64,000 bases of DNA from Bdellovibrionales bacterium (GTDB lineage: Bacteria; Bdellovibrionota; Bdellovibrionia; Bdellovibrionales; UBA1609), in assembly GCA_019637855.1 (NCBI GenBank), contig JAHBUX010000009.1, forward strand, positions 62,001-126,000. Direction: 5' to 3'. The notes beneath the pieces were generated by a model. The model saw only the letters and a list, made by a program, of their open reading frames with translations. It ran no database searches and was not told the DNA's origin. Within the stretch, counting starts at the first letter, position 1. Each line of letters opens with the position of its first letter. The translations under genes were made by a program, and so were the position numbers. This document shows, piece by piece, positions 10,948 through 56,983 of this stretch.

Positions 10948-12060
10948 TTAGAAGGTGACGCTGACCGGGTCAAAGGTGACGTTGATGGCGGCGCCCTGGG
11001 GCGGCGTCCAGTTGCCCGAAAACACGACAGAGTTGGCGTCGGCGTTGTAGTAAAAGCCGCCATCATTCGCCGGATTTGCATCCACGTGCGGCACGTTGCT
11101 GCCGTTAATTACGATTTTAATCGTGGACGGAATCGGACGTGCGTTGCCCAAGTAGAACTGGGTCGAGAGTTTTACGATCTCTTGCGAGATCAGTGTCAGC
11201 TCTTGCGAGAAATCGCCACAAATGCTGGCCTTCACTCCGCCGGTCGCATCTGACATCTCGCGCACGCGGCGGCCGATCTTTTGCGCACCATTGTTGATGC
11301 TATTCAAACAGGCCTGATCAGGTACGGAGATCGAGCTCACATTGTACTTGCGGGCATTGCCGCTTGAGCCTGTAAAGCCATCCAAGAAGGTCACGAAATC
11401 TGAGATCGGCGTTAACGGACGATCATAGGATTCGTAGTGCTTGGTGCTGTTGTTCGAAAAGTCGTCTTCATCCGTGAGGATGATCACAGCCAAAAAAGAA
11501 CCGTTTCTTTTGAAGCCTTGGTTCCATTGGTTGGTGAGGGCTGCCACCATGCTATCTAAACTGCGTTCATCACCCTGACCACCCACACCTTGAGTAGCGT
11601 TGACCATAAAGGTTTGCGCTAGGTTGGGGGTGTTTTTATTCATAAGGTAAACGCCCGAGTTGCCCAGGCCGCCCCAAGAGGTCGGAGCGCCATCACGCCA
11701 GCGCGAAATCCACTCTTGCGATTGCCCCTCAAAATAGGCCGGGCGCGGATTGGAATTGAAAAACGGCGTCCATAAAGGACCTGATAAATAGGCGTGAGTA
11801 TTGGTCACGGCCATTTGGAAATCATAGCCTTTGCCGGCGAACTCTTGAATAAAGTAACTGAAGTTATTGGCCAGATTGGCCTGCGAAGAAGCCATGGAGC
11901 CAGAATTATCAATCACCCACATCACATCGATCTTAGTGTCGACGCTCGCTGTGTTTTGATAGAAGGTTTGGCCATCGGCTAGAATTGAATACGAACCGGC
12001 GCCATGATTACAAGCTGCTGTCGACATCATCATACTGAGCAGCACGATAAACTTTTTCAT
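10948..12060 (-). CDS. VWA-domain lipoprotein
   Basis: The product is 370 residues from the chosen start. Residues 1-18 are a lipoprotein signal with Cys in STAACNHG. A von Willebrand A domain follows, with the metal-binding MIDAS motif VIDNSGSM (DxSxS) near residue 50, and LAVIILTDEDDFS as the later VWA core strand. The C-terminal 90 residues look like a small beta-domain. Such proteins bind partners at the cell surface or in the periplasm. The start at 12060 is fixed by GGAGGAGCTT just before the ATG; a longer frame to 12096 has no such site. Confidence 0.82.
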   Translation of the reverse strand: MKKFIVLLSMMMSTAACNHGAGSYSILADGQTFYQNTASVDTKIDVMWVIDNSGSMASSQANLANNFSYFIQEFAGKGYDFQMAVTNTHAYLSGPLWTPFFNSNPRPAYFEGQSQEWISRWRDGAPTSWGGLGNSGVYLMNKNTPNLAQTFMVNATQGVGGQGDERSLDSMVAALTNQWNQGFKRNGSFLAVIILTDEDDFSNNSTKHYESYDRPLTPISDFVTFLDGFTGSSGNARKYNVSSISVPDQACLNSINNGAQKIGRRVREMSDATGGVKASICGDFSQELTLISQEIVKLSTQFYLGNARPIPSTIKIVINGSNVPHVDANPANDGGFYYNADANSVVFSGNWTPPQGAAINVTFDPVSVTF

Positions 12061-12392
12061 AAGCTCCTCCGCCGGGACGTCATTTCCCGCGGCCATTGAT
12101 CCATAGGGTTACAAGAGCTTACATACAGAGATGGATCACTAAGCTTATCGACCATGGTCTAGTCGGCCCTTAAAACTTTAACGGTCCTGCGTTAATTTGC
12201 ATCTCAGCCCAAATCTCCTAAAAAAGCGTTCGCCCCTTTTACACTTCACGTGAGCTGACTCACGTTGAGACCATTGTCTCCTTATAAGGCGGCCTTGTTA
12301 TCCACATCAAAAGGTTCGTCTGGTGCACCCTGGGCGGTGGGGGGTAAATTGGAGACTAGAAGCTCTCTTGAGCCTAGAAAGGAGGTGGTTGA

Positions 12393-40911: not shown

Positions 40912-41448
40912 ATGGCTAATTCTTCGGCGCGCTACGCTCTCAATAAAAACAAATATCTCCTCGAACCCGAGGTCGATCGACTCGAATACATTTTGAAATC
41001 CTTCGCCAATAAGGATCCCCGCAACTGTACCCTGCTATGGACCTGCCTACATTCAGGCGCGCGGGCCCAAGAGGTTTTAAATGTGCGGGTTGAAGACCTA
41101 AACACCTACGATGAAACGGTGTTTTTTCGTGGCTTAAAGGGCAGTAACGATCGCGAACTCCCCCTACCTTCATGGCTCTTCCAAAGGCTAGTGCAGGAGA
41201 TTCCGAGCGCACGCGAAGATATCCTCTTTCCGATCACCTACAACCGCCTACGCCAGATTTGGGATCATTACAGACCGGTACACAAGAAGCTGCATGCCCT
41301 CAGGCATACGTTCGCGATTCGACTGTATAAGAAGACGAAGGATTTACGCCTGGTTCAGGTCGCCCTTGGTCACAGAAATATTACAAATACTATGGTTTAT
41401 GCCGATTACGTCTACTCACAGCAGGAGCTGCGCAAATTGATCCTCTAA
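40912..41448 (+). CDS. Minimal tyrosine recombinase (integrase catalytic domain)
   Basis: The product is 178 residues and consists of the catalytic domain only. The active-site residues are all present: Arg in SGARAQEVLNV, Lys in GLKGSNDRELPL, HxxR in HALRHTFAIR, His in ALGHRNI and Tyr in VYADYVYS. The N-terminal core-binding domain of XerC/XerD is missing, so it may be a truncated but intact single-domain enzyme. It could mark a past insertion; no attachment-site duplication was found by eye. The flanking gaps on both sides are AT-rich. Confidence 0.85.
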   Translation: MANSSARYALNKNKYLLEPEVDRLEYILKSFANKDPRNCTLLWTCLHSGARAQEVLNVRVEDLNTYDETVFFRGLKGSNDRELPLPSWLFQRLVQEIPSAREDILFPITYNRLRQIWDHYRPVHKKLHALRHTFAIRLYKKTKDLRLVQVALGHRNITNTMVYADYVYSQQELRKLIL

Positions 41449-41760: not shown

Positions 41761-44268
41761 ATGGCTAGATTCGGTCAACTATTGGTATCCATTCTTCTCG
41801 CCTCAACGTCTATCCTCACCATGAACGCTTGGGCCAAAGACGATGAGAAGGCGATTAAAATCATAGATGATTCGGATAGCCGCTCTTGTGAGGACCTTCT
41901 TGACGATGTCATCGCCAGCTTTGAAGCCAAGAGCGCAGGTACAGAGAGCCTCTATATTGATCAAATCATCGCGAACGACAGGCCATCGTTTAGCTCTCTG
42001 ATTGATCCCGATCCCGAAAAAAACTTGTTCGCACGCGCACCTTTGAACGCCATGAACGCCGGCCAGCGCATTTTGAGCTTCGTGCTCAGCGGTGGTGTCG
42101 AAAAACGTAAAATCGGTTTCTTAAAAGAGCCCGTCACCGTTTACCCGTTCCTCTCGGACGGCACCGATTTAACCAAAGGCTATCGCGTTGAAGGCAACTG
42201 GGAAGCCCTACAAGAATGGGTGAGCTTCATGACCTCGGCCGCGGAGGGCCATCGCTCTGGCCGTACCGTCCCGATTCTCTACGGCCCCGGTGGTACCGGT
42301 AAATCAGAAACCCGCACCGTCTTGGAAAAAGGCGGCGAAGTTTTGACCGTTCAAGATCCCCGCTTCTTCTTGTACTCGTTTGACTGGGTCGGAATGAGCA
42401 AGCTGCCGGAAATAGTCAAGCGCTGGGGACCGGATGTCGATGTCATTCCGGCTCCGCAAAACACCTCCCCAATTGCCATCCTACCCCCTTCGCTGCAGGA
42501 ACAAGCTCTGAAGATGGCCAGCATCAAAGGCCAAGACATGCTGGACGGGATCCGTCCTGCCGGCCTGCTGACGCCCGACTACTGGTCACAAAACATTTTG
42601 CGCATCATTATTGAGAAATACACAGCCGATAAAGGTTCGCCGCTAACTCTTAAAGAAACCCTGCAAGCCTTAAGCAAACACGTTCAACTGCGCCGCTACG
42701 CCATTGCCGCCAGCTACCGTCAGATGCCCGTAATCAACGTTCAAGGCATTGATTCGGACCAAACGCAGCTGTTCGTGAGCTCAATGCCGGTCGTTCAAGC
42801 GATCAGCCCGCAAGGTAAACGTGATCCGTTCGCCTACTCATACTCGGGCATTTTCTTCGACGGCATGATGAACGCCACTTTTATGGAAGAAGCGTTCCGC
42901 TCGGATCCGAAGTTCTTAGAGAAGATCATGGACGGACTTGAGTCGCGTGAATTCCAAGCCAGTGGTGCCGCCAAGGTTCCATGGGATTCTTTCGTGACCA
43001 TGATCTCGAATAAAGAGAGCTACGACTTGATGCTGCAAAAGCCCGGCCTTGGCGCTCTTATGCAGCGCTTGCAGAAGATCGAAATGGTTCAACCCGTGCA
43101 ATCGCAATTGATTGCTCGCACGCTGCTCTATGAATTCAAAGACAGCCTGTTCATGCAGCCCGTGGGTGACGAAAGTGCTCCCTGGGTCAAAGGTGACGTC
43201 GACAAACTGTTCCCTATTCCTGAAAAGCTCGAGCCCGGCTACGTTGTCGGCCCCGAGCGCCGCTACCGCATGCGTATCGGCGAAGGCAAAGCCGCGATTG
43301 AAATTGCTCCGCACGCTTTGCGTTTCGTGGCGCACATCATGGCCACCACGCGTTTATCCACGGACAAAGACAAAGCATTCCAACTGGTCCCGACGCGTAT
43401 GACTCACGACCATATCTTCACCGACCCCATCCAGCGTATGCGCTACTGGGATGGAAAGCTGACAGATGTTCAGCCAGAGGAACGTCGCACACTGGACGAA
43501 ATGACCAACAAGCTGGACGAAGGCCATCACGGTATCTTCCATCGCTGGGGCCGCGGCTGGTTACGCAAAGCTCTTAGCGTCGTGAAAAACGATGCTCAGT
43601 TTGAAAACACCCTGACTGCTTCGGTCTTGTTGAAAGTGTATGAAGAGTACGGCTTCCGCGCCGACGGCTTTATCCAGATCGAAGGCGATCGCAAGAAAGA
43701 AGCCGAGTACAAGCGTTTGGGACGCTTGGTCTTGAAAGAGCTTTTGATCCCTACCGTTGAAGAAGACATCAACTTCGCGATCGGTTCGGAAACGGCTTCG
43801 ATCTCGCAGATTTACGACGACGTTCTGCAAGAGCTCGTTGAGACCGGCAAGAACGAAAACGCCACGACCTACGTTTCGAAACGCACGAATAAAGTGACGA
43901 ACATCAATAAAGAGCGCGTCGCCTTTATTCGTCAACACTACAAAAAGAACAACAGCCACGACTTGGATATGACCCAAGTGCTGTTTTTCCATATGAACCA
44001 GCTGTCGCAAGGCGAGAAGAACGTCACACCCAGCCCTGAAATCACAGCTGGCCTGTCGGCTTACTTGGCTAAGAAGACTGTAGAACTGGCGAAAGCTGCG
44101 GGCTACGGCGAGATCGCCCGCGATGAGGGCACCGGCTCCAAGGAAGAAAAAGCCCGCGTGAACGCACTAGTGAAACAGCTGGAAGGTATCGGCTACAACC
44201 GAGCCGCGGCTTTGGATGCTTTCGATCTGCATGAGCTGACCAAGCAGCCGACGGAAGCCGTTCAATAG
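41761..44268 (+). CDS. Exported PrkA (YeaG)-like AAA+ protein
   Basis: The product is 835 residues. Residues 1-25 are a Sec signal peptide with the site NAWA-KD. The rest aligns by eye with PrkA/YeaG: the P-loop YGPGGTGKSETR (175-182), KRDPFAYSYSGIFFDGMMNA (PrkA has a DPDAYGYSG counterpart), a sensor-like WDSFVTMISNKESYDLM, then APHALRFVAHIMATTRL and a PrkA-type C-terminal helical domain ending with GYNRAAALDAFDLHEL. PrkA is normally a cytoplasmic AAA+ protein once described as a Ser kinase and works with YeaH and SpoVR. AAGGGGGG lies upstream of the ATG. First gene of the exported cluster. Confidence 0.85.
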   Translation: MARFGQLLVSILLASTSILTMNAWAKDDEKAIKIIDDSDSRSCEDLLDDVIASFEAKSAGTESLYIDQIIANDRPSFSSLIDPDPEKNLFARAPLNAMNAGQRILSFVLSGGVEKRKIGFLKEPVTVYPFLSDGTDLTKGYRVEGNWEALQEWVSFMTSAAEGHRSGRTVPILYGPGGTGKSETRTVLEKGGEVLTVQDPRFFLYSFDWVGMSKLPEIVKRWGPDVDVIPAPQNTSPIAILPPSLQEQALKMASIKGQDMLDGIRPAGLLTPDYWSQNILRIIIEKYTADKGSPLTLKETLQALSKHVQLRRYAIAASYRQMPVINVQGIDSDQTQLFVSSMPVVQAISPQGKRDPFAYSYSGIFFDGMMNATFMEEAFRSDPKFLEKIMDGLESREFQASGAAKVPWDSFVTMISNKESYDLMLQKPGLGALMQRLQKIEMVQPVQSQLIARTLLYEFKDSLFMQPVGDESAPWVKGDVDKLFPIPEKLEPGYVVGPERRYRMRIGEGKAAIEIAPHALRFVAHIMATTRLSTDKDKAFQLVPTRMTHDHIFTDPIQRMRYWDGKLTDVQPEERRTLDEMTNKLDEGHHGIFHRWGRGWLRKALSVVKNDAQFENTLTASVLLKVYEEYGFRADGFIQIEGDRKKEAEYKRLGRLVLKELLIPTVEEDINFAIGSETASISQIYDDVLQELVETGKNENATTYVSKRTNKVTNINKERVAFIRQHYKKNNSHDLDMTQVLFFHMNQLSQGEKNVTPSPEITAGLSAYLAKKTVELAKAAGYGEIARDEGTGSKEEKARVNALVKQLEGIGYNRAAALDAFDLHELTKQPTEAVQ

Positions 44269-44286
44269 ACTATCCGTTTCTTCATA

Positions 44287-44320
44287 GATGAGCCTGCGTT
44301 CGGGGGAGGGCGGGCTCATC
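44287..44320 (+). promoter_or_regulatory. Intra-operon hairpin
   Basis: gatgagcc (44287-44294) pairs with ggctcatc (44313-44320) around a G-rich loop in the 77-base gap between the first two genes of the exported cluster. No T-tract follows. It may be an mRNA-processing or partial-termination site that sets the ratio of the two products. Confidence 0.4.
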
Positions 44321-44345
44321 GTAAATGTGAGCTTTGGAGTTTGCC

Positions 44346-47300
44346 ATGAGACTGTCATTCATTTCCCCCGCACTCGTGATTCTGATGACGGCAAGCTCCG
44401 CCTTCGCCAATCGCGAAGAACCGATCATCTCTGCGCAAACGGGTGGCCAGCCCTATCTGTTGGTCCTCAAAGACTCGACTAAAAAAAGCAAACGCGAACC
44501 GGGCATCTATGTCCGCAATCAGGACACCGGGGACTGGACGCTACTTTTTCCTGGCGCCGTTTTAGTCGATAAGCAACGTGGCGCTTCGACGAACATGCTG
44601 AAGCTGCAAGAGGTCGACAACCGCATGCCGATTATGGCGGTGATCGACGGCCAAATCCGCATTTGGAGTTTAATGTCGACCGCGGCAGATTCCAAAAGCT
44701 TTATCGCTTTGGGGCCTGAACCGATCACCGACATTGGTTCCGGCACGCGCTGGGAGTTACCTGCAATTACTTCGGCTGACCAACTCGCAGTCGCCCAATT
44801 TTTGACTCCAGATCGCAAGGCTATGCTGCTCTTGGTTTCGATCAAGAATCCATCACCTTCGCAAATCGCGCAAAGTGACGGATTGACCATCGCCCTGACC
44901 TTAGAGGCCGGCGATGGCAAAGCACTCGCGTTGCGCAAAGACCGCGCATTCGTCATCGATCAAAAATTCCGCCCCGTTCAGCAGTTAAACGATCTGGCTA
45001 AGGTCGATGCGGAACACGGACTCACCATCTTTAGTGAATCGCTTGAGCAGGCGACACTGAACCAATGGGACATGATGGATTATCACGATTACAACACCAA
45101 GGTTCGCAACCTTGTGTCGGGAAAGCGCTACGCGCTCCTTATGAACGCCCCTTTCTTTAAACCCACGGTGGCCCGCTGGAGCGTCGACAAACAGAAAGCC
45201 ATATACGACGATTTGTTGCAATTCGATCTAGAAACGATCACGGGCGCCCATCTGATGCAAAGATGGAATCTGTTAAGCGGAAACCCCGAGGTCGATATCA
45301 CGGACCCGAAAATAGCTTCGCAATTTCTAATACAACTCAACGGCCGCCTACGCGTGGATACAAATGGCGAAGTTTGGACCGTGCTCGATACCGAATCCAA
45401 GTCTTCCGTATTCGCGATAGAACAAGACTTTTTTATTGCAACCCGGATCAAAGACTACAAACGTCATCTCAAACTCGGAAAGTTCCGCCCTAACGCAAAA
45501 ATTCCCGACCGTTCATCTCTTTTGGTGTTCGAACGCGACGGCCGCGTTTATGTACTCATGAGCTACGGCTATCTACGTGAGGGAATCTCCGCGATCGCGG
45601 TCCCGCCACCTGAATATTTCCGCGCGGGGCGTACGGAGCTGTATGTCTTTACGTCGCAAGATGGTCCGGAGTTGCACTTTGAGCGCAGTATGTCTCTTTC
45701 GGATGCTTTCTATGACAGCAACGAACTGCGTGCGCGTGTGATCGAAGAGGTCGATGACAAAGCGTCTCTGATTATCGACGTAAAGACGCCCCCCATGGGC
45801 GGGGCCCCTCATTACCACCAAGCACATAAAGGCACTTCTCCCTACCTCGACTTGCTTCGTTCGACCGATGGCATCAAGCGTTTTGTCTACACGGTACCAA
45901 TCCATTCGGAGCGGTTAACGAACAATTTGATATATCGTGAGTTTGAGTTCTCGGACGGTAAAAATCCGAATGGGATTTACGAGATCAACGACTCCGGCGA
46001 AGCAGTGGCCTTCACCTCCGGTGAACTCTTGCAGCGGCAAGGTTTCGAAGGGTTTGAGATCCTCGGTCGCTCGGCTCCCTATCAAAGCGAGACGTTAGGT
46101 TCTTTTACCGCCAGCGGATTTTTCATAGATCCCACTTTTCGCGAAGGGAAACACGGATTTCAAACACTGCTCGATTTGCGGGGCACGAAAGATACCACTG
46201 CTTGGAGGGCCAGCGTAATTATCGCTAGCAATACTGCCGATCTGCACTCGAACATTGTCGACCTGCGCTTGCTTAACGGAACCCGTAAGCATGCGTCGGA
46301 TATGTGGATGCTGCAGTTCTATCCAAACACCGTTTGGATAGGAACCTTTTCGATCGTCAAATCGGACAAGGGTCTTACGGCCAGCGCGGTCAAAGGGATC
46401 ACTCAAAAATATGACGGCGATCCACAAAAGTTTATGGAACGTGTGGTGTATTCGTCAAACGGCGACCCGTACCTGATCGAGACACCGGAAATCTCACCGG
46501 ATTCGCGCGAATTCCAGATGCGCAGCCTTCGCACAGGACAGAGTATTTTCCCAAAACGGCTCTACGGAAATGATGCGATTACATTCGATTTCAATATCAA
46601 TGCCGGCGATCTATTTCAGTCATTCAATGAAAATTCAGCGTTCAGCTGGAAAGTCCAGCCTTTCCGACAACTCGAGGAAAAGCGCAATGGTTCTGTCGCC
46701 GCTCTGGTGAAAAACCAGCTATTCGCGAAGTTCTCGCAGTACTTAAGCGAGGCCGCCGACCCTCAGCAGCCTAAACGTCGTCGCATTCTGATTGTGCCGG
46801 ACGAGCTAAAGGCACTGGCAGACGACTTTGTGCGCGAGTCCTATTTGATCCCGCAGCGGAAAGACGCGCCAAAAGATTCTCTGTTCCACCGCTTTAACCG
46901 TAAGCTGGGTCTGTACTTGTTCAATCGCGATCAGGCGACTCCCGATGCCGTCTTCGAAAATTTCGAAATGGCCGCACGTAAAAAAGATGAAGCTTCGGTG
47001 ATCGTGGCAAGCCTTGAGGACCTCATTGAAGTCAACCGCCCCGTCACCGACGACGACAATACCTTCTTGCTGAAAATCCCCGAATCCGTATCCGACGACG
47101 AAGGCCAGGCGCGGATGTATTTCGAGGAAATCACGCCGCACATCTTCTATCTGATGGCAGCCGGTGCACCGGTTGAATTTGAGGAGTTTCGCAAAAAGGC
47201 GCCCGCGCCGCGCGCCACGACCCTATTGATCGGTACGCGCGACGAACTCGTTCAACTGCAGGAGGACGCCGCGTCCGAGATGGCTGCTGGTCTAGTAGAC

Positions 47301-49685
47301 GCTTTCGAGGTCATCGAACTTCCACAGCCGACTTTGGACTCAAAAGCGGCGATCCTCGAGGAAGTCATGAACCGTCCTGAAATCAAAGGATTGGGTTTTG
47401 ACTATGACGCGAGCGAAATTTTGGAGATGCCCAGTGAAAGCAAGGACGAGCAGCGCCGCAAGCTCTTTGAATACGCGATCACCCGCATCGATGCGCTGAC
47501 CGCGGAACGTGGTAAAAATTCATATTCCAAGTTCGCCGAATTTGAAACTCTGTACCGAGAGCGCATTATCTCGGATCCGATCGTACGCACCACGCGTCTG
47601 ATCGACCGAGCCTTTATCGAACGCATACTGAAAACACAGTTCAATTTAGCTCTGAACCTGGCTGACCTCCCCGAAAACGATCACCGCAAGATTTTGAGCC
47701 GCGCAGATGCGATCATTCGCCTTCATCGTTCAGGCATGCTGGGCGAGTTTGAACTGAAAGCTCAACTCATTCGCGTCATCTTGTCTCAGATGACCCACGA
47801 TCCCGCTCGCAATATAGCAGCAAGCCTGATCTTTGCCGGTGAACCCGGCACCGGAAAGTCCCAGGCCTGGTGGGCGCTTGTCGAAGCATTGGATCTGAAG
47901 CTCTATAAACCAGGGCTGAAGAACAATGACGCCAACGCGTTCTATTTGGATACGGTGAATGTAAAGAAGGGTGATCCCGAGGCTCGTAAGCGCGTGCTAC
48001 GCGAACTCAATGAGTTCGTGACTAGCGAAAAAGGCTCGACCGGATTTATCTTCATCGATGACTTGAGCTTCGCCGACGACGATCTAGGTAAGGACATTGT
48101 CCAGTGGATACGCGCCCTGCAACAAGCTGAAGGCGGCGTTTATCGTTATACGAACGAAGAAAAATCCACCTTCAGCGTTTCAGTGCGCAACCTCTTCATT
48201 GGTTTGGCGATGAACTTCACGGACAATAAAAGCACACTTAGCCAATACTCCGGCGACGACGTGAACGGCTTAGTCTCGAAAATCGTGGCAACCGGTAGCC
48301 GTTACGGAATGGATAAGTCTTTCGTCGACCGCTTCGGAGCGGTCTTCAATTTCGACAAGTTCCATCAAAGCGTAAAAGAACCGGCGCTTAACAACGCTCT
48401 CTTAAATGGCGCTCAGTCCAAAATGACCCGGGCCGGCCAATACGTTGTGGCCGATCCCGAGCTGGTTCGCGAAGCCTCAAAAGCCTTTCCAGACTTAGGC
48501 GCACGTCCCTTCTTATCGAAGGTTACGGAAGCAATCCTCAGCCAGCCCGATCAATTGCAGGGGAGCCGCTCGAAGATCTTTGCCATTATCCCCAAGACCC
48601 AAGAGGAAAGGGCCCTAGCCGAAAATGTGGGAACCGCTGTTACAACCGGCGCCTGGGGCGAACAATCCTCCGAGGTAAAAGCTTGGGTTAATAAAAATGC
48701 ACGAGTGATCGAAATCGACCAAAGCCAAACGGCAGCTCTTATGTTGATGCGCTTGATGGTCCCCTCGTTCCGCTCGCCCATCATCGAATCGCTTGTCTTC
48801 GCGATCCAGACGGATCCACGCTACAACTCGGATCGCCTAGCGCAAAACTACTTCTTGTCACCAGCACTTCTGGCCGTGGTCGACCATATGAACCGCGCCG
48901 AAACGATTCCACTTAAAGACATAAAGATGGATGAGTCCCTGTTCGGCATTAAGACACGCGAGGATCGCGAAGAGTTCGGCAAACTTTTGGAAGAAATGTC
49001 CGTCGGGCAAACGCCGTTCGTTGTCCCTCTCGGCGAATCACGCGACCGCTTAAGCTTGTGGGCGGAACTCGGTGTAAATGGTACCCGTGCGAACCCGATG
49101 AACTCGCGAAACAGCGTTATCCGTACCTATCGCGGAAAAATCGAGGAGCTGCTAGAGAAGCACTTGCTGCGCACCTTAAACGTTCATGACTTGAGTGTTT
49201 TAGACAATCCCGAGGACTGGTTGCGTGGCCTGCCCGAAAAGGTTCCGGATCACACGGACGAGCTGGGTCGCGAACTGAACAACTTGCTGTTCGCTTTTGC
49301 ACGCGAGTTCCAAGCTTCGGATCTACGCGAAGCCATGGGCGAAAACTCCCCGAAGCTCGATCCTTACGTATCTGCGCGTTTCTTCTTGATGACACTCGAC
49401 CAAGCGATCTCGCGCCTGCCGTGGACTCGACTGTCACAAAAGATGATGGTGGCCCTAGAGGCCGCAACTCATGACTTGGTTTTGGGCCAGTCCGTGAGCG
49501 TGAAAAACTGGCTCTTCAATCCTAAGGACCGCGTGTCTTTATTGAAGCCGGTTACGACAAACCTGATCCGTGAAATCGTCGAATTCAATTCGTCCGTGCG
49601 CGAAGTCAGTCAGGACGAACGCAGCCGTAAGGACACCGCCTTCACCACGAACTGCGAGAAGTATCTAGACAAGGGGACACAGTGA
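44346..49685 (+). CDS. Giant exported Clp-like AAA+ protein
   Basis: The product is 1779 residues from the ATG at 44346 (GGAG 6 bases upstream). A signal peptide ends SSAFA-NR. Residues 25-800 are beta-rich with no known family. Residues about 830-1090 look like a degenerate Clp D1-type AAA module lacking a P-loop (TTLLIGTRDELVQLQ, VDAFEVIELPQPT). Residues 1130-1400 form an intact AAA+ module with Walker A GEPGTGKS (1165-1172), Walker B FIFIDDLSF (about 1235) and an arginine-finger-like DRFGAVF. The end overlaps the next start by GTGA, so the two are translationally coupled. Confidence 0.75.
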   Translation: MRLSFISPALVILMTASSAFANREEPIISAQTGGQPYLLVLKDSTKKSKREPGIYVRNQDTGDWTLLFPGAVLVDKQRGASTNMLKLQEVDNRMPIMAVIDGQIRIWSLMSTAADSKSFIALGPEPITDIGSGTRWELPAITSADQLAVAQFLTPDRKAMLLLVSIKNPSPSQIAQSDGLTIALTLEAGDGKALALRKDRAFVIDQKFRPVQQLNDLAKVDAEHGLTIFSESLEQATLNQWDMMDYHDYNTKVRNLVSGKRYALLMNAPFFKPTVARWSVDKQKAIYDDLLQFDLETITGAHLMQRWNLLSGNPEVDITDPKIASQFLIQLNGRLRVDTNGEVWTVLDTESKSSVFAIEQDFFIATRIKDYKRHLKLGKFRPNAKIPDRSSLLVFERDGRVYVLMSYGYLREGISAIAVPPPEYFRAGRTELYVFTSQDGPELHFERSMSLSDAFYDSNELRARVIEEVDDKASLIIDVKTPPMGGAPHYHQAHKGTSPYLDLLRSTDGIKRFVYTVPIHSERLTNNLIYREFEFSDGKNPNGIYEINDSGEAVAFTSGELLQRQGFEGFEILGRSAPYQSETLGSFTASGFFIDPTFREGKHGFQTLLDLRGTKDTTAWRASVIIASNTADLHSNIVDLRLLNGTRKHASDMWMLQFYPNTVWIGTFSIVKSDKGLTASAVKGITQKYDGDPQKFMERVVYSSNGDPYLIETPEISPDSREFQMRSLRTGQSIFPKRLYGNDAITFDFNINAGDLFQSFNENSAFSWKVQPFRQLEEKRNGSVAALVKNQLFAKFSQYLSEAADPQQPKRRRILIVPDELKALADDFVRESYLIPQRKDAPKDSLFHRFNRKLGLYLFNRDQATPDAVFENFEMAARKKDEASVIVASLEDLIEVNRPVTDDDNTFLLKIPESVSDDEGQARMYFEEITPHIFYLMAAGAPVEFEEFRKKAPAPRATTLLIGTRDELVQLQEDAASEMAAGLVDAFEVIELPQPTLDSKAAILEEVMNRPEIKGLGFDYDASEILEMPSESKDEQRRKLFEYAITRIDALTAERGKNSYSKFAEFETLYRERIISDPIVRTTRLIDRAFIERILKTQFNLALNLADLPENDHRKILSRADAIIRLHRSGMLGEFELKAQLIRVILSQMTHDPARNIAASLIFAGEPGTGKSQAWWALVEALDLKLYKPGLKNNDANAFYLDTVNVKKGDPEARKRVLRELNEFVTSEKGSTGFIFIDDLSFADDDLGKDIVQWIRALQQAEGGVYRYTNEEKSTFSVSVRNLFIGLAMNFTDNKSTLSQYSGDDVNGLVSKIVATGSRYGMDKSFVDRFGAVFNFDKFHQSVKEPALNNALLNGAQSKMTRAGQYVVADPELVREASKAFPDLGARPFLSKVTEAILSQPDQLQGSRSKIFAIIPKTQEERALAENVGTAVTTGAWGEQSSEVKAWVNKNARVIEIDQSQTAALMLMRLMVPSFRSPIIESLVFAIQTDPRYNSDRLAQNYFLSPALLAVVDHMNRAETIPLKDIKMDESLFGIKTREDREEFGKLLEEMSVGQTPFVVPLGESRDRLSLWAELGVNGTRANPMNSRNSVIRTYRGKIEELLEKHLLRTLNVHDLSVLDNPEDWLRGLPEKVPDHTDELGRELNNLLFAFAREFQASDLREAMGENSPKLDPYVSARFFLMTLDQAISRLPWTRLSQKMMVALEAATHDLVLGQSVSVKNWLFNPKDRVSLLKPVTTNLIREIVEFNSSVREVSQDERSRKDTAFTTNCEKYLDKGTQ

Positions 49686-52600
49686 GAACCTTAATTTCGC
49701 TTTTAATCGCTCTTACGTCGGTATCACCGGCGTGGGCGAACGACGACGACGCCGGTGCCGCCCGCAGCAAATTCATCTGTGAGGAAGCCCTAAGCGTGCA
49801 AAAAGGTACGGTTCGCGTACACGGCGATGGTCTTTCCAGCGCCTATGCGGAACAGGGCCAGCGCGAGGCTGAAGAGGCACGGGAAGTTTTAAACAAACTT
49901 GGCGTGCCCACCCCCCCACACCAGATTATCTTTGCGCCCGAACAACAGTTGAACGTATTGGCCGCAACCGGGGCTCTTCCGATGCCACACGCGATTTCGG
50001 GCGCTGAAATCTACCGTGCCCTTTCGACCGGCAGCACAATGGGTATTCTTGAGTTCGCTCAGCCGGGTGGCGCGCCCTTAAAGCACTCCGGATGCGCGAC
50101 TTGCCGCTCGTACTACTCAAACATGACAGCCATTCGCGATCAGCGCCCCATCTACTTTCACGTTGGCGGCCACAACCATGTCTTCCAACGTTCACTTCTG
50201 GCTCGTGCCCGCAACGTCGATCCCATTGCCGCCAGCGCCGTGATGGCTAAGGACATGGAAGAACAATACAAGAAGCACGGCCAGGAACCGATCAGCCTCT
50301 TTTATCATTACTTGCACGCCATGATGGAGCTGCAGGACTTCACGGGTGGAACCTTTGACTCGCCTGACAAGCTGACCCCGGGAGCGAGCGCCATTCAAGA
50401 GATCAAAGTCAAGAAAGACGGCGGCAACTGGGACTTCTTGACGCCAGAGAAAAAAATCAAAGAAGTGCCGTGGACAAAGACTCCGTCCGTACTGCAGTTC
50501 ATGACAGCCAACCTTCCCCCGCATATCACCGGCTATAAGCGCGAGATGCTCGAGAAGTATGAGCTCACCGTTCGCACCTACCCGTCCGTTGCCAGTCAAA
50601 AGTTTGTGCACGAGGGCTGGGCAACATTCTTGATGATGCTGGGCCAGAAGCACTCGAACTGGAACTCAGACCGCGACGTGTTCGACTTTGCCCGTATCGT
50701 CTCAGGCGCCGTCGGCAAGCAGCTCAACGTGCAGCAGCCGTACTCGTTCGGCGTGCACGGCTTCCATCATCTGTACATGAAGTTCAAGCGTCGTCCCGAG
50801 TTGAAGGGCTTGACCGAACTCGCACAAGACGTTGAGTTTGTGAAGTACATCGACGGAATTCTACCGACGATGATCGACGCGGTCTTCGTCAACATGGTCA
50901 TCGACGAAGAGTTTGTAAACCGTCACAATCTGGCCCTTCTGCGCGGCGGTACGGAAGAAGAGCTAGGCCCGATCCACGAGAAATTAAAAGCGCGAGGCGT
51001 TCCCGACGACCAGTTGCCCAACGCCGTGATCGTCTCAAAGAGCGCCGAGCGTTTACGCAAGGCGATCATGCGCCGTGTGGGCGTGAAGCACATGCCGCAG
51101 ATGGTGGCCGTCAATTCCGCGATCACCAATCCGTTCCAGCTAAATCTGGAGCAAAAGAACCTCGAAGACGCTCCCCTTGAACCGGTTTCGGCCGCCCAGA
51201 TTTTCTTTGCCGCGACCCAAGTGATGGAGCAGCCCGTTTCGGCGACGATCCTGATGTCGTCGCGCCACTTCCTCGCCGAAGGTGCCAAAGCCGAAGGCCC
51301 ATTGACGACCGTTCCCGTTCGCATGGAAGTGCGTCCTGACGGAAAAGTAAGAGTCTTCAAACGCGCCACCCTTGACTCTCAAGCGAAAGGTGTCGCCGAA
51401 GAAGAACTGCCGCAAATGGCAGCCGAATTGGAAATGGCCATCGACTACTATCGCACCGATCAAAGCTTTAGTTTTTCGGACGAACTGGTCGAGGAAGACC
51501 GTCAACGCTGGGAGAATATGTTCCCGCGCATGATAAATGAAGAAGTCGCGAAGTCAGCCACGGCAAAAATGGAGCCATTGGTGGACTATGCACCGGCGGC
51601 AGCGCGCGCCATCATGCTTTTTGGCGAGTTGATCAAGAATCGCTTCAATAAACAAATGGAAGCGGCTTTCCAAGGTAAGATGAAGCTGAAGTTTGGTCCT
51701 CAGGGCGTGAGGCTGCCCATGCTACCAATGACGCCGCATTTGCAGTATGACCGCGAGCATATCAATGCCGTCAACGCGGCCCTGCCACCGGCGCCGATGG
51801 ACACGATCGATCAGCGTCTGCTGAACATGAAAACAGCACTGGATGCGAACGTGGACGATGGCTCGCTTTTAGGCCCCGTACCTGGAGCTTCGGTCGGCGA
51901 TGCGATTAAGATCCCCGGCAGCGGTAGTGGCCAAGGCAAAAAGAAGCCGGGTCAAGGCGATGAAGGTGAGTCGGATGAACAAGAGATCACCATTCCCGCT
52001 GAACTCTATCGCAAACTCTTGGCAATGCACTTCGATATCCCGAACCCGCGCATGACTGAGGGTGAAACGCCGATGGTTCGCGAGATCAAGATGGGCGAAC
52101 GTCGCGACTCTTCGGAAGAGCCATTGTGGGAAAAGATGGTCGCCGACGCTTTGGTGAAGTCCATTGTCGCTCGCAAAGCCAAGGGTGAGAGCAATCCGTT
52201 CCAAACAACGTCAACAGCTAAGCTCATCCGCGACGGCTTCGGCCTACTGGACGAAGACGACTACATTATCCGCTCACGTCGTGAAGTCATGATCCCGTCA
52301 TTCGACGCGGTCGTGGTTGTAAACGTCGACATTTCGGGCTCGATGCAAGGGCACCGTCTGCAATTGACGAAGAACGCCGTCTACAACGTGCGGGAATTGT
52401 TTCGGGCCGTGTACCCGAACGTAAAATTCCACTATGTAGGCTTCGACAATAAGGCCAAAGAATATAAAGAATCGGAAATCTGGGATACGTATCGCGGGGG
52501 CTCGACCGAGTTCACACCGGCATTGATAGAAACAGAAAAGATCCTTGCGAAATATCCGCGCGCTCAATGGAACCACTATGTCTTGTTCGCGGGTGATTCA

Positions 52601-52843
52601 GAGCTCTTCGATTTGCAAAAGTTCATGTCCGAATTCGAGCGCCAATCGGCGGGCTGGCAGTGGGCGGGCTTTATTGTCTCGCGCGATGAACGAGATCCGC
52701 CAGGCATCGACAGCAACGGCTTAAGGGCAGCACTTGATAACTTTAAGACAAAGTGGAAATGGATCGGCGTAACGCAGATCAACGGAGATGAAGATATTTT
52801 TCGCGGCTTGGGCGAACTCTTCCCGAAAACCTCTGCAAAATAG
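49682..52843 (+). CDS. Exported SpoVR-YeaH (DUF444/VWA) fusion protein
   Basis: The product is 1053 residues; the GTG start overlaps the upstream stop (GTGA). A signal peptide ends SPAWA-ND. Residues 50-500 match SpoVR/YcgB: PTPPHQIIFAPEQQ (PHQI shared with YcgB), YFHVGGHNHVFQ, then VLQFMTANLPPHITGYKREM and FVHEGWATFLMML (HEGWA at 310-314; NEGWATFWHY in YcgB). A Gly/Lys-rich linker near 740-770 leads to a DUF444/YeaH-type VWA domain with MIDAS VDISGSMQG (D883, S885, S887), GGSTEFTPAL and AQWNHYVLFAGDSE. SpoVR and YeaH are separate cytoplasmic proteins elsewhere; here they are fused and exported. Confidence 0.88.
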   Translation: MRTLISLLIALTSVSPAWANDDDAGAARSKFICEEALSVQKGTVRVHGDGLSSAYAEQGQREAEEAREVLNKLGVPTPPHQIIFAPEQQLNVLAATGALPMPHAISGAEIYRALSTGSTMGILEFAQPGGAPLKHSGCATCRSYYSNMTAIRDQRPIYFHVGGHNHVFQRSLLARARNVDPIAASAVMAKDMEEQYKKHGQEPISLFYHYLHAMMELQDFTGGTFDSPDKLTPGASAIQEIKVKKDGGNWDFLTPEKKIKEVPWTKTPSVLQFMTANLPPHITGYKREMLEKYELTVRTYPSVASQKFVHEGWATFLMMLGQKHSNWNSDRDVFDFARIVSGAVGKQLNVQQPYSFGVHGFHHLYMKFKRRPELKGLTELAQDVEFVKYIDGILPTMIDAVFVNMVIDEEFVNRHNLALLRGGTEEELGPIHEKLKARGVPDDQLPNAVIVSKSAERLRKAIMRRVGVKHMPQMVAVNSAITNPFQLNLEQKNLEDAPLEPVSAAQIFFAATQVMEQPVSATILMSSRHFLAEGAKAEGPLTTVPVRMEVRPDGKVRVFKRATLDSQAKGVAEEELPQMAAELEMAIDYYRTDQSFSFSDELVEEDRQRWENMFPRMINEEVAKSATAKMEPLVDYAPAAARAIMLFGELIKNRFNKQMEAAFQGKMKLKFGPQGVRLPMLPMTPHLQYDREHINAVNAALPPAPMDTIDQRLLNMKTALDANVDDGSLLGPVPGASVGDAIKIPGSGSGQGKKKPGQGDEGESDEQEITIPAELYRKLLAMHFDIPNPRMTEGETPMVREIKMGERRDSSEEPLWEKMVADALVKSIVARKAKGESNPFQTTSTAKLIRDGFGLLDEDDYIIRSRREVMIPSFDAVVVVNVDISGSMQGHRLQLTKNAVYNVRELFRAVYPNVKFHYVGFDNKAKEYKESEIWDTYRGGSTEFTPALIETEKILAKYPRAQWNHYVLFAGDSELFDLQKFMSEFERQSAGWQWAGFIVSRDERDPPGIDSNGLRAALDNFKTKWKWIGVTQINGDEDIFRGLGELFPKTSAK

Positions 52844-52882: not shown

Positions 52883-53152
52883 ATTCATTATCGTGTGAAT
52901 AACGATCCATTATAGAAGGCACAGTGCACCTGAAAACGCGAAAAACTTGCCTGGTTCCAATATTGAACCTCTCTCCGCACTCTCCTATCGCTTTTGAGTA
53001 AAATGATCCACCGCATTTAATAGCTGTTCCTACAATATGAGTGAAAATAATATCCGCTATAAATCTCGGCACACACATATTTATCCGCACACAAGTTGGA
53101 AATGAAAATGCGTTCAGCTACTTCAGATCTCTCACAACAATCAGGGGGAAGC

Positions 53153-56100
53153 GTGCGCGAAAGGATCTGGAAGATGGGGCTATTGGGGTTAGTCCTCTCG
53201 TTCATCATAAGCAGCAACAGCAGTTTCGCAAAAACCGATGTGATCGAAAAGGTCTACACGATCAAAGAAATTGCCGGCATGGATCTCGACGAGCTTTTTT
53301 CTTTGGGCGAAGAGTTCAATGCCCCTTTGATTCGCGTCAATAAACTCATGAAACGCACAGACAATGAAAATGCAGACATCGCGGCGATTGTCGCACTGGC
53401 GCGCTTTCCCATTCAGGAGTCGCAACTCACGCTGTACGCCTTACTTCGCTCCGAGTTCAAAAAGGGCGAGGGCCTCGGTAAGGTGGAGATGCTACCGGAA
53501 GTGATCACCGCTGCGTTGGACACCTTGAAAGCCTTCGGTACGGGCCAACCGAACGACCTCTTCGACGAGTTGCTCGAGGTGCGCGAAGAGGCCACAAAGC
53601 GCCTTAAAGGCGACGACGGCGAAATCGTCGCCGCCATGATCGATGAGGTCTTGGATGTCATCGGCAAGCGCAAAGACCGTTTAATCCATCTGAACGATCG
53701 TATCTCCGCGCGCAAAAAGCAAATGATGCAGACGAACGAGCGCTTGAAACGCATCCAAGATTGGATGGAGAAACACTACAAGGGCCAGCCAGAAATCGTC
53801 GAAGGCTTTTTAGATCTGGAGTGGCGGCGCGCGCTCTACGGCAAAACCCGCAACAAGCCGGATGCCATCTACATGATGGGGCTACCCGGAACTGGGAAAG
53901 ACACAGGCGCTGAGGTCTTCACCGACGCGATCCATGGTTATAAGGGCGCTCATAAGACACATCTTTTCCGCATGCCTCTGATGAAGTCCAAAGCGGACAC
54001 CTGGCAGGTTTTCGGCTCGGCCACCGGTTACGTTGGCTCGGAATCCTTCCCGCCATTCCTGGCTTTCTTGGTGCAACACTCCGGCGGCAAATACAAACTT
54101 GAAAAAAAGCAAAACAGCCGCGGCGAAGACACCTTTTTCGTAGTCGAAAACACCTCTTACAGTGGCGAGACGTTAGAAGGTTACTTTTCACCTGAAAGCG
54201 CCGTGGTTTTCGTCAACGAATTCCACAACTGGTCTAAGCAACTCAAAGATGATGTCATCAAACAAGCACTCGAAAAAGGCTTGTTCCATATCAATAACCC
54301 CAATGGCGGGCTTTCTGAGATTTCCGTGCCCGTACGCTTTGTTCTGGCCTCCAACGAAGGCATTCGCCTACTCACTTCACGTGAAGCCAATGGTCAGCGC
54401 CATGGCAAACAAATGACCTACGAACATATTCTCAACAAATGGGAAGTGAATCATAATAACAAGCCAGCACTGAAAAATGAGATCTTGGCCACTAATGGCA
54501 GTCGCAATAGTTCCGTAAACGGTGAAGGCGCGCCCGGCATCTCGGAAGAACTGCTTAATCGCATCCCTGATCGTTTTATCTTCTTGCTGCGCCCACTTTC
54601 GCCAGCCGACCTAAAAGACATCGCTGAACTTGGTTTGGTCGAGCTCTCTAAGAGCATCTCTGATGAGAGCGGCGTTCTCGGCAAAGTGAAACTGGCCTGG
54701 TCGCGTAACCTAATCGACCTTATTCAAGAGTATGATTATCTGGCCGAAGAGAATGCGCGCCCGATCCTCGGCCACCTCGGCACCATGGTCGAAGATCCTC
54801 TGATCGATGCGATTAAATCCGGCAAACTAAAGAATCTTCCGAACGGCACCACGGTCGAGTTGGATGTGAAGTTGAACGCCGACAAGACCCGCAGCCTGAT
54901 CTTCACGGTGAACAAAGGCAAGGGGGCTACCGAGCAGTTCGAACAACAGATTCGCCAAACGCTGAAGGATATCCCGAAGGAAGCCATCAGCGATTCACGC
55001 ATCGATCAATTGAGCGGCCTGGAAGAAGCCCTGAGCAGTGTGGTTTTCGGTATCGACCCGATCTTGAAGCGCCTTTCGCAGAGAGTGATCAGCATTCAAA
55101 ACGAAGCCGGCGGCAACAATGCCCGACCGGTGAACGTGATGATGCTTACCGGGCTATCTTCCACGGGTAAGACAGAAACTGCAAAACAGTTGTCACGTCT
55201 GATGTCGGGCTCAAACGACGAGTTGCTGACATTTGACTTCAGCAATATCCAAACGCTATCGGCCTTCCAGGAAAAAATCTTGGGCTTGAAAGACGGGCTC
55301 GGCAATCCGATCCCTTCTGAGTTCATGAAGTATTACGATCGCAACAATGGTTGCGTGACCGTGGCCTTTGATGAATTGGCCAACGTGCAAAGTGAAGTTC
55401 TGCTGAAGACGCTCTATGATTTCTTCCGCGAGCCTGTGGTCGGAACGTTTTCTGACGGCAAACCGCGCGGCATGGGCTGCGTAACGGTGATCATCACCGG
55501 TAATGCAGGCCAAGAGCTCTACACTCAAGTGCCCAGCTCTATTCCTATGGAAGCGCAGATGCACGCTTGGAGCGAAATCTTCAAACGCACAGCCAACGAT
55601 CCGGCCTTACAACGCCGTGTGCTTGAAAAGACCTATCCAGGCCCTCTGGTGAATCGCATCGGCATGAACAATATCTTCTTCGTGCCGCCGCACACTTATA
55701 AGTCGTTACGCCAGCTGGCTCAGCTGAAGCTGCACTTGGCACTAGAACGGCTTGCGGACACCAATGGTCGCCGCGGTTGGAACATCACCTTTCCGACGAC
55801 AGAAGAATACAAAGGATTTGTCACCAACGTGATCAATGAAGGCTTTGATCTGCGGGCACAAGGGGCCTCGATCGACTCATTTATTCGCGATGATTTCGAA
55901 GAGCCGGTCAAATACCTGTTGCTGCGCCACAAAGTCCCATCGGGCAGCCACGTGGTTCTTAAGTTTAGGAACATGACGGATAACCATGATAACGAAAACC
56001 CCGGCTATATCACCTACGACGTGTACGTCGATGGCCAAAGCGAGCCCTTAGAGTATCAAATCCGGCGCCCTTATAAAAATATGCCGATGGAAAAGGACGA

Positions 56101-56983
56101 GTCGGGCCAGATCTTCACAGCCTATCACGAGGCCGGCCATAGTCTGGTGCGTGAGGCCTTGAACGACGGCGTCTATGAACCCTACGCCATATCGATCATT
56201 CCTGGCGTCACCATGATTGGTGCGGATTGGATCTACTATGACGGTATCGCCAAGCACAGCCAACGCAAAGAAGTGGCTCTAACCCGTGACTGGGTGATCC
56301 GCGAGATCGCGGCCCTCGCCGCAGGTGAAACCGCAGAACGCCTGGCCTCACGTGGTGAGAATCACACAGCTGGCAAAGAGAACGACTTCGCGCGGGCGAG
56401 TCGTTTAGCGAAGAACGCCATCTTACGTTACGGTCTCTCGGGCGCTTGGGGTGTACACTCCGTACCCACCGATCAAACGGAGGAAAAGTACTTGGACAGC
56501 CTGTCACAAGAGCGTCGCAATATCTTGGAGAAAGAAGTTGCGGCCATGGTGAACGAAGGCCGTGACCTGGCCCAGCAGACTCTGGAAGCGAATTTGGCCG
56601 CACTCGGCGAGCTGGCCGTGGCCTTGGCAGAAAAAGGCACGTTGGAAAAAGACGATTTGGCCAAGTTCTATAAAGAGCATACGCTGATCAATCCGCGCCA
56701 GAGCTCAAGACTCGCGCGCACTATCAACCGCGTACGCACCAAGATCAATCAGCTCAAGCACCCGCGCCGCAGCCACCAGGTGAACGCCGAAGTGCACCCG
56801 GCCTTCCCACAACCCAGACAGATTGCGGACATTGATCAAATGGCGGAAGAGGCCAAACACCAGCAGTTCGAAGAAGTGGCCTTGCCGGATAAACTACCGG
56901 TAGGAACCAACGCTCATTATGACCGTGCTCATTCAGTTGTGGACGTTGAGAGCTGTGAAGGCGCTTTAGCGCAAGCGATCTAA
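53153..56983 (+). CDS. Exported double-AAA+ protein fused to FtsH-type M41 peptidase
   Basis: The product is 1276 residues from the GTG at 53153, preceded by AGGGGGA; the frame runs further to 53096, but the signal peptide (core MGLLGLVLSFIISSNSS, site SSFA-KT) fits the later start. AAA module 1 has Walker A GLPGTGKD (243-250) and FVNEFHNW as Walker B. AAA module 2 is Clp-D2-like, with GLSSTGKT (667-674), VAFDELAN and ITGNAG. A Peptidase_M41 domain follows, with AYHEAGHSLV (H992, E993, H996) and the third zinc ligand D1078 in ENDFARAS. FtsH has this peptidase after one AAA module with membrane helices; this order with two AAA modules and export is unusual. Confidence 0.85.
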   Translation: MRERIWKMGLLGLVLSFIISSNSSFAKTDVIEKVYTIKEIAGMDLDELFSLGEEFNAPLIRVNKLMKRTDNENADIAAIVALARFPIQESQLTLYALLRSEFKKGEGLGKVEMLPEVITAALDTLKAFGTGQPNDLFDELLEVREEATKRLKGDDGEIVAAMIDEVLDVIGKRKDRLIHLNDRISARKKQMMQTNERLKRIQDWMEKHYKGQPEIVEGFLDLEWRRALYGKTRNKPDAIYMMGLPGTGKDTGAEVFTDAIHGYKGAHKTHLFRMPLMKSKADTWQVFGSATGYVGSESFPPFLAFLVQHSGGKYKLEKKQNSRGEDTFFVVENTSYSGETLEGYFSPESAVVFVNEFHNWSKQLKDDVIKQALEKGLFHINNPNGGLSEISVPVRFVLASNEGIRLLTSREANGQRHGKQMTYEHILNKWEVNHNNKPALKNEILATNGSRNSSVNGEGAPGISEELLNRIPDRFIFLLRPLSPADLKDIAELGLVELSKSISDESGVLGKVKLAWSRNLIDLIQEYDYLAEENARPILGHLGTMVEDPLIDAIKSGKLKNLPNGTTVELDVKLNADKTRSLIFTVNKGKGATEQFEQQIRQTLKDIPKEAISDSRIDQLSGLEEALSSVVFGIDPILKRLSQRVISIQNEAGGNNARPVNVMMLTGLSSTGKTETAKQLSRLMSGSNDELLTFDFSNIQTLSAFQEKILGLKDGLGNPIPSEFMKYYDRNNGCVTVAFDELANVQSEVLLKTLYDFFREPVVGTFSDGKPRGMGCVTVIITGNAGQELYTQVPSSIPMEAQMHAWSEIFKRTANDPALQRRVLEKTYPGPLVNRIGMNNIFFVPPHTYKSLRQLAQLKLHLALERLADTNGRRGWNITFPTTEEYKGFVTNVINEGFDLRAQGASIDSFIRDDFEEPVKYLLLRHKVPSGSHVVLKFRNMTDNHDNENPGYITYDVYVDGQSEPLEYQIRRPYKNMPMEKDESGQIFTAYHEAGHSLVREALNDGVYEPYAISIIPGVTMIGADWIYYDGIAKHSQRKEVALTRDWVIREIAALAAGETAERLASRGENHTAGKENDFARASRLAKNAILRYGLSGAWGVHSVPTDQTEEKYLDSLSQERRNILEKEVAAMVNEGRDLAQQTLEANLAALGELAVALAEKGTLEKDDLAKFYKEHTLINPRQSSRLARTINRVRTKINQLKHPRRSHQVNAEVHPAFPQPRQIADIDQMAEEAKHQQFEEVALPDKLPVGTNAHYDRAHSVVDVESCEGALAQAI

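What the first reader, a model, noticed from the sequence alone, without database searches (positions are those of the whole stretch)
41761..52843. Exported PrkA-YeaH-SpoVR module
The three families PrkA (YeaG), DUF444/YeaH and SpoVR (YcgB) form a known conserved cytoplasmic module. Here PrkA-like (41761) and a SpoVR-YeaH fusion (49682) occur in one operon, but each has a classical Sec signal peptide with an AxA-type site (NAWA-KD, SPAWA-ND). The gene between them encodes a giant AAA+ protein, also with a signal peptide (SSAFA-NR). Matched motifs include PHQI and HEGWATF for SpoVR, DISGSM and AQWNHYVLFAGDSE for YeaH, and DPFAYSYSG for PrkA. Export of an ATP-dependent module poses an energy question, as the periplasm lacks ATP. 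A role in or on a prey cell, or a novel energy link, is inference.
Basis: partly seen in the sequence, partly recalled or inferred. Interest (0 to 1): 0.95.

Follow-up and report, generated by a model that had tools for sequence, protein, structure and literature searches.

The report
Exported ATP-dependent PrkA-YeaH-SpoVR protein machine
A group of bacteria related to bacterial predators carries a second copy of a well-known cytoplasmic stress module, and every protein of that copy bears a secretion signal while keeping the parts needed to burn ATP, which is surprising because no ATP is thought to exist outside the cell membrane.

Summary
Window 41761-52843 encodes a full-length PrkA homologue, a giant protein (beta-propeller-like region, Walker-less Clp-type AAA domain, intact AAA domain) and a SpoVR-DUF444 fusion, each with a Sec signal peptide. 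The same genome also carries the ordinary cytoplasmic PrkA-YeaH-SpoVR operon.

The fusion occurs in 30 of 369 searched genomes of the phylum (14 families), nearly always in the order PrkA*, giant, fusion. All strong named matches belong to Bdellovibrionota. Hydrophobic signal-like N-termini are present in 52 of 54 intact homologues, against 3 of 184 canonical relatives. The exported proteins are cysteine-poor (1.6-3.1 versus 6.5-10.0 per 1000 residues) apart from one conserved terminal cysteine, C-[ED]-x-x-L. That tag recurs on other exported proteins, including the neighbouring AAA-AAA-M41 protease. Walker A, Walker B-region, sensor-1 and arginine-finger positions are (nearly) invariant.

Best reading: an extracytoplasmic AAA+/vWA remodelling machine that uses ATP met outside the cell. 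Export is well supported; the ATP source and any prey role are inference. The module is nearly absent from the family that probably holds the model predators, and its genome lacks an ATP/ADP translocase.

The parts
41761..44268 (+). Exported PrkA homologue (835 aa): signal peptide ...MNAWA|KDD, single Cys C43 (SCEDLL), Walker A GPGGTGKS 175-182, E377, sensor N417, R436
   Evidence: Pfam AAA_PrkA; hhalign to canonical PrkA E 4e-33 over 635 columns; best PDB hit 9xip 'Serine protein kinase' 9.7e-36; invariant catalytic positions; one Cys in 835 aa
44346..49685 (+). Exported giant AAA+ protein (ORF from TTG 44334, ATG 44346 preferred): signal peptide ...SSAFA|NRE, beta-propeller-like region ~25-740, degenerate Clp-type AAA D1 ~770-1105 without Walker A, intact AAA D2 (Walker A GEPGTGKS, DD 1242-1243, N1294, R1333), C-terminal Cys C1774 (NCEKYL)
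   Evidence: Structure model pLDDT 69.8; Foldseek propeller and Clp matches; VIA Z 12.8, rmsd 6.0, 242 residues to ClpB 6qs4 over 770-1104; invariant motifs; one Cys in 1783 aa
49682..52843 (+). Exported SpoVR-DUF444 fusion (1053 aa): signal peptide ...SPAWA|NDD, Cys C33 (ICEEAL), CATC 138-141, HVGGH 160-164 and HEGWAT 310-315 (SpoVR), vWA domain ~872-1050 with MIDAS DISGS 883-887, T942, D972; GTG start overlaps the stop of the giant by 4 nt
   Evidence: Pfam; hhalign; alignment A1 with C33 invariant in 20/20; structure model pLDDT 76.5, vWA Z 17.3; overlap read in sequence
53096..56983 (+). Neighbouring exported AAA-AAA-M41 metalloprotease (1295 aa), signal peptide ...SSNSSFA|KTD, HEAGH zinc motif, C-terminal Cys tag SCEGAL; probably its own transcription unit
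   Evidence: Pfam Peptidase_M41 77.3 bits, Clp-like AAA by NCBIfam; 26/369 genomes, mostly not next to the module; tag kept in homologues L097, L099, L101-L103; hairpin sequence in the 252-nt gap before it

Best explanation
The three genes encode a Sec-exported paralogue of the cytoplasmic PrkA-YeaH-SpoVR module that works outside the cell's inner membrane as an ATP-driven protein-remodelling complex. Shown by sequence: signal peptides, cysteine depletion, a conserved terminal cysteine tag, complete PrkA and Clp-type ATPase sites, a vWA domain with an intact MIDAS, and the HxxGH/E site of SpoVR. Inferred by analogy to AAA+/vWA pairs such as NorQ-NorD: the AAA+ rings (PrkA* and the propeller-bearing giant) pull on or twist client proteins presented through the vWA/SpoVR partner. 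Inferred: the terminal cysteine tags hold the parts, and other exported proteins including the AAA-M41 protease, to a common partner or anchor. Inferred: ATP is met outside the cell, for instance from lysed or invaded cells, much as Plasmodium HSP101 works in the parasitophorous vacuole.
For: Signal peptides conserved in 52/54 intact homologues versus 3/184 canonical relatives. Cys per 1000 aa 2.36/1.62/3.10 in the exported families versus 9.23/6.53/9.96 canonical; in a 1.3 Mb sample of this genome none of 23 cytoplasmic proteins of 700 aa or more has one Cys or fewer. Terminal Cys invariant in 20/20 fusions and at least 90% of giants, and present on unlinked exported proteins. ATPase residues (nearly) invariant. 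Gene order kept across many families. Canonical module present separately, so this is not a displaced housekeeping copy. Tagged exported proteins include S41, M3 and M41 peptidase families. NorQD mechanism: PMC13036017; HSP101: PMC6550532.
Against: No ATP source is identified. The ATP/ADP translocase family PF03219 is absent from this genome and found in only 3 of 30 fusion genomes. The module is absent from nearly all genomes of the family that probably includes the model predator Bdellovibrio. Location is predicted, not measured; almost all relatives are MAGs. The role of the cysteine tag is unknown.
Confidence: 0.45

Rival explanations
1. The complex sits in the organism's own periplasm or on its surface and runs on nucleotide that the cell itself supplies or on nucleotide trapped during assembly, with no link to prey; function would be envelope protein quality control or cofactor insertion.
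For: Signal peptides and tag fit any extracytoplasmic site. The canonical module in E. coli is a starvation/stress module (PMC4664914), so an envelope version is plausible. Nearly absent from the probable Bdellovibrionaceae.
Against: No known ATP supply to the periplasm; no conserved exporter gene seen next to the module.
Confidence: 0.27
2. The proteins are effectors that cross into a prey or host cell and act in its ATP-rich cytosol.
For: Phylum rich in predators; very large proteins; two deeply divergent allele types at one locus within a genus, as expected under antagonistic change.
Against: Sec export alone does not cross a second membrane; no conserved secretion genes in the cluster; near-absence from the probable Bdellovibrionaceae.
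Confidence: 0.13
3. ATPase motifs are kept for folding or oligomer assembly only; outside the cell the proteins act as a static scaffold or adhesin (propeller plus vWA).
For: Propeller-like and vWA domains are common in extracellular adhesion proteins; D1 of the giant has no Walker A.
Against: Walker A lysine, Walker B-region acids, sensor-1 Asn and Arg finger stay (nearly) invariant at 20-25% overall identity.
Confidence: 0.1
4. The signal peptides are uncleaved anchors or mis-called starts and the module works in the cytoplasm at the membrane.
For: SignalP could not be run; starts are GTG or TTG for some genes.
Against: Positive n-region favours the C-terminal part outside; AxA sites; cysteine depletion; conservation across three protein families and many bacterial families.
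Confidence: 0.05

Closest known systems
Canonical PrkA(YeaG)-YeaH-SpoVR(YcgB) operon
   Same: Full-length homology of all three parts; conserved AAA, MIDAS, HxxGH and EGWA motifs; a canonical copy lies in the same genome at C1:291-296 kb
   Different: Signal peptides, SpoVR and DUF444 fused in one chain, an extra giant Clp-like AAA+ protein between them, cysteine depletion, terminal Cys tag
MoxR AAA+/vWA pairs (NorQ-NorD, RavA-ViaA, CobS-CobT)
   Same: AAA+ ATPase paired with a MIDAS-bearing vWA protein; NorD appears among the fold matches
   Different: PrkA-type, not MoxR-type AAA+; exported; SpoVR domain added
Plasmodium HSP101 (PTEX)
   Same: Clp-type AAA+ unfoldase that acts outside the exporting cell; the PTEX core is among the fold matches of the giant's D1
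   Different: No PTEX150/EXP2 pore partner found; propeller-like N-terminal region; D1 without Walker A; bacterial
TorsinA (ER-lumen AAA+, own knowledge)
   Same: AAA+ protein with a signal peptide working in a non-cytosolic compartment with conserved cysteines
   Different: Eukaryotic, ER lumen holds ATP, single AAA domain
FtsH / ClpB families (for the neighbouring gene)
   Same: M41 peptidase domain with HEAGH and Clp-like AAA modules
   Different: Two AAA modules plus M41, signal peptide instead of membrane anchor, C-terminal Cys tag

Membership tests
PrkA (AAA_PrkA PF08298 + PrkA C-terminal PF06798) | AAA_PrkA domain above cut-off | tested here: met
   26.7 bits against cut-off 25, only 95 residues matched
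PrkA (AAA_PrkA PF08298 + PrkA C-terminal PF06798) | Homology over AAA and C-terminal region together | tested here: met
   635 aligned columns, probability 99.9, E 4e-33 with own canonical PrkA; PF06798 itself not hit
PrkA (AAA_PrkA PF08298 + PrkA C-terminal PF06798) | Cytoplasmic, no signal peptide | tested here: not met
   Hydrophobic signal-like N-terminus in 14/14 intact homologues versus 2/56 canonical
DUF444/YeaH | DUF444 match and MIDAS DxSxS...T...D | tested here: met
   70.6 bits; D883, S887, T942, D972 invariant or nearly so
DUF444/YeaH | Separate gene | tested here: not met
   Fused behind SpoVR in one frame of 1053 aa
SpoVR | SpoVR match with HxxGH and EGWA motifs | tested here: met
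   32.2 bits, cut-off 27; H160, H164, E311, G312 invariant in 20 sequences
MoxR AAA+/vWA systems | MoxR-type AAA+ partner | tested here: not met
   The AAA+ partner's best PDB profile match is PrkA (9xip), far ahead of Clp
Clp/Hsp100 (giant protein) | Two AAA modules, D1 fold of Clp type | tested here: met
   Model 770-1104 aligns to ClpB D1, Z 12.8, rmsd 6.0, 242 residues; second AAA with Walker motifs from 1169
Clp/Hsp100 (giant protein) | Clp family HMM match | tested here: not met
   No Clp HMM hit in Pfam or NCBIfam; N-terminal region is beta-rich, propeller-like
Lipoprotein (lipobox) | Cys directly at the cleavage site | tested here: not met
   Tag Cys lies 14-18 residues after the predicted cleavage site in the first and third proteins, or at the C-terminus in the giant

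The most novel reading that the evidence does not exclude
Bdellovibrionota possess an extracytoplasmic, ATP-driven protein-remodelling and proteolysis apparatus: several unrelated AAA+ proteins (PrkA*, the propeller-Clp giant, AAA-AAA-M41, a ClpB-like protein) carry signal peptides and a shared terminal single-cysteine tag that gathers them outside the membrane, where ATP from other cells powers them.
Probability: 0.3. Interest if true: 0.95.

Novelty: new variant of a known kind. Interest (0 to 1): 0.85.

Why it matters
AAA+ machines are assumed to need cytosolic ATP; a conserved bacterial family that keeps its ATPase sites after export would show either ATP-powered work outside the membrane or a new way of supplying nucleotide there. 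The PrkA-YeaH-SpoVR module is widespread and its mechanism unsolved; a paralogue with fused and added parts shows which parts act together. The terminal C-[ED]-x-x-L tag may be an unrecognised sorting or anchoring signal. No paper in the searched library uses the phrases exported, secreted, periplasmic or extracellular AAA+.

Tried and rejected
Viral contigs: no close relative. No Rfam family above its gathering score and no tRNA in the window. ATP/ADP translocase as an energy clue: absent here, no association with the module. The neighbouring AAA-M41 gene as part of the operon: rejected, since 26 genomes hold it mostly away from the module and a hairpin sequence stands in the gap. A conserved fourth gene in the neighbourhoods: none besides the syntenic fab genes within the genus. 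The hits of the PrkA model at C1:688225 and C24:31986 are short and sub-cut-off in 810-839 aa frames, probably Lon by length, not tested. PDB sequence search for SpoVR-DUF444: only weak vWA-type and unrelated matches. The SpoVR part of the structure model is not among the listed fold matches, which one domain (vWA) filled, so its fold is untested. A first Pfam call failed on wrong coordinates; a first tree call failed on labels.
Full report
What is there. Three large same-strand genes lie at 41761-44268, 44334(46)-49685 and 49682-52843. The second and third overlap by 4 nt, and the first two are about 80 nt apart, so they look like one operon. Pfam finds AAA_PrkA in the first, and SpoVR and DUF444 in the third; the giant gives only sub-threshold DUF815/AAA hits. 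Profile comparison shows that the first protein is a PrkA homologue over its whole length (635 columns, E 4e-33) and that the third contains essentially all of SpoVR (407 columns, E 3e-28) followed by most of YeaH (300 columns, E 2e-25). The best PDB profile match of the first family is a PrkA chain, 9xip, at 9.7e-36, against 5.5e-12 for the next, ClpC1.

The ordinary module is elsewhere. The same genome (26 contigs, 3.37 Mb) carries a canonical SpoVR, DUF444 and PrkA operon at C1:291-296 kb with high scores (474, 207 and 292 bits). The window genes are therefore a second, divergent version, not the housekeeping copy.

Distribution. A search of 369 genomes of the phylum with the fusion finds it in 30 of them (my count), spread over 14 families; other hits are the short canonical proteins. 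The named scan gives Bdellovibrionales, Bdellovibrionaceae, Bacteriovoracaceae, Oligoflexales and unplaced or delta-type MAGs, plus one contig labelled Zetaproteobacteria that groups with Oligoflexales at full support. Of about 33 loci read, 17 show PrkA*, giant and fusion side by side (in one the PrkA* gene is on the other strand), about 10 show giant and fusion up to a contig end, and two lack the giant. Family f3 (probably Bdellovibrionaceae, because its one positive genome G173 shares its contig length with a 'Bdellovibrio sp.' record) has it in only that one genome (the family name is inference).

Export. SignalP was not available. A hydrophobicity test on homologues with intact N-termini is positive in 14/14 PrkA*, 17/17 giants and 21/23 fusions; the two exceptions are a contig with N-gaps and an over-long reading frame. 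Canonical relatives score 2/56, 1/63 and 0/65. A stricter test with cleavage site gave 34 of 60 exported proteins and 0 of 187 canonical ones. An independent sign is cysteine depletion: 2.36, 1.62 and 3.10 per 1000 residues against 9.23, 6.53 and 9.96. The window PrkA* has one cysteine in 835 residues and the giant one in 1783; none of 23 sampled cytoplasmic proteins of 700 residues or more has so few.

A terminal cysteine tag. The few cysteines that remain are at one end, in the context C-[ED]-x-x-L: SCEDLL and ICEEAL after the signal peptide of the first and third proteins, NCEKYL at the C-terminus of the second. C33 of the fusion is invariant in 20 of 20 sequences and C1774 of the giant in at least 90%. 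The neighbouring AAA-AAA-M41 protease ends in SCEGAL and its homologues in ACAEFL, PCEELL, DCQALL, NCASLL and SCELLF. In about 1.3 Mb of this genome, 5 of 26 other exported single-cysteine proteins carry the strict tag against 0 of 98 cytoplasmic ones (Fisher p 3e-4). One is window 3814-5445 (SCEADL), whose relatives L233 and L234 keep LCEILL. Others with a looser form include M3, S41 and DUF2608 proteins. The function of the tag is unknown; anchoring or disulfide assembly is inference.

ATPase sites. In PrkA*, the Walker A glycines and lysine, E377, N417 and R436 are invariant or nearly so. In the giant, K1175, D1242, D1243, N1294 and R1333 are invariant in 16 sequences. The fusion keeps the MIDAS residues and the SpoVR HxxGH and EGW motifs. 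Such conservation at 20-30% overall identity implies working sites.

Architecture of the giant. A model of residues 1-1110 (mean pLDDT 69.8, 11 sequences) shows a beta-rich region with propeller-type Foldseek matches at low TM-scores, then residues 770-1105 that align to the first AAA ring of ClpB (Z 12.8, rmsd 6.0, 242 residues) but lack a Walker A. The intact AAA module follows. It is thus a Clp-type double AAA protein with a propeller-like front, by fold and not by family HMM. The fusion's vWA domain is modelled well (Z 17.3).

Evolution. In four genomes of one genus the module stands next to the same fab operon. The fab genes are 66-82% identical there, while the module is 55-61% identical in one pair and only 22-25% in the two others. 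The tree puts these in two well-supported clades. Either divergent alleles replaced one another at the locus or ancient copies were sorted.

How it probably works. Canonical PrkA/YeaH is a stress module whose AAA and kinase residues are needed in E. coli (PMC4664914); B. anthracis PrkA oligomerises with ATP but showed no protease activity (PMC13001217). AAA+/vWA pairs such as NorQD remodel a client by twisting the vWA partner (PMC13036017). I infer that the exported module remodels or unfolds proteins outside the membrane, with the vWA/SpoVR chain as adaptor and the two AAA+ proteins as motors, possibly feeding exported tagged proteases. Plasmodium HSP101 is the nearest precedent for an AAA+ unfoldase working outside the cell that makes it (PMC6550532). 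ATP from lysed or invaded cells is the simplest supply, but there is no direct evidence; PF03219 translocases are absent here and in 27 of 30 fusion genomes, and near-absence from the probable Bdellovibrionaceae speaks against a core predation role. In B. bacteriovorus the canonical operon bd0228-bd0231 is listed among putative attack-phase core genes (PMC5430801).

Verdict. Export: about 0.9. ATP-driven work outside the cell with external ATP: about 0.45 as a whole account. Prey-cytosol action: about 0.13. Members of known families in an unexpected compartment with new parts: a new variant of a known kind, of high interest.

Noticed in passing
window 53096-56983: Fourth exported AAA+ protein: signal peptide, two Clp-like AAA modules, M41 protease domain, C-terminal SCEGAL tag; found in 26/369 genomes, mostly unlinked to the module.
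   Followed up: partly
window 3814-5445 (-); L207 7746-9062; L088 3821-4870; L223 9997-10512; L075 9056-9730: Other exported proteins whose only cysteine sits in a terminal C-[ED]-x-x-L tag; a possible general sorting or anchoring signal.
   Followed up: partly
L054 1756-4365: Signal-peptide protein with two AAA domains (AAA and AAA_2) and a near-C-terminal KCDSHL tag, next to the module in a Bacteriovoracaceae-type genome.
   Followed up: partly
L081 8697-11804 (own genome, C1:108697-111804): Signal-peptide-like protein of about 1030 aa with an AAA_22 domain near residue 727-834; another candidate exported ATPase.
   Followed up: no
window 40912-41448: Short phage-type integrase (Pfam 69.7 bits) directly upstream of the module; might bear on mobility of the locus.
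   Followed up: no
L044 2-5590: Two tandem SpoVR-DUF444 fusions behind one giant gene.
   Followed up: no
L039, L046, L066 versus window: Within one genus the module at the same locus is either 55-61% or only 22-25% identical while the flanking fab genes stay at 66-82%: hyperdivergence or allele replacement.
   Followed up: partly
window 10948-12096 (-): Exported protein whose predicted mature part starts ACNHG, with a vWA-like MIDAS motif (DNSGSM).
   Followed up: no
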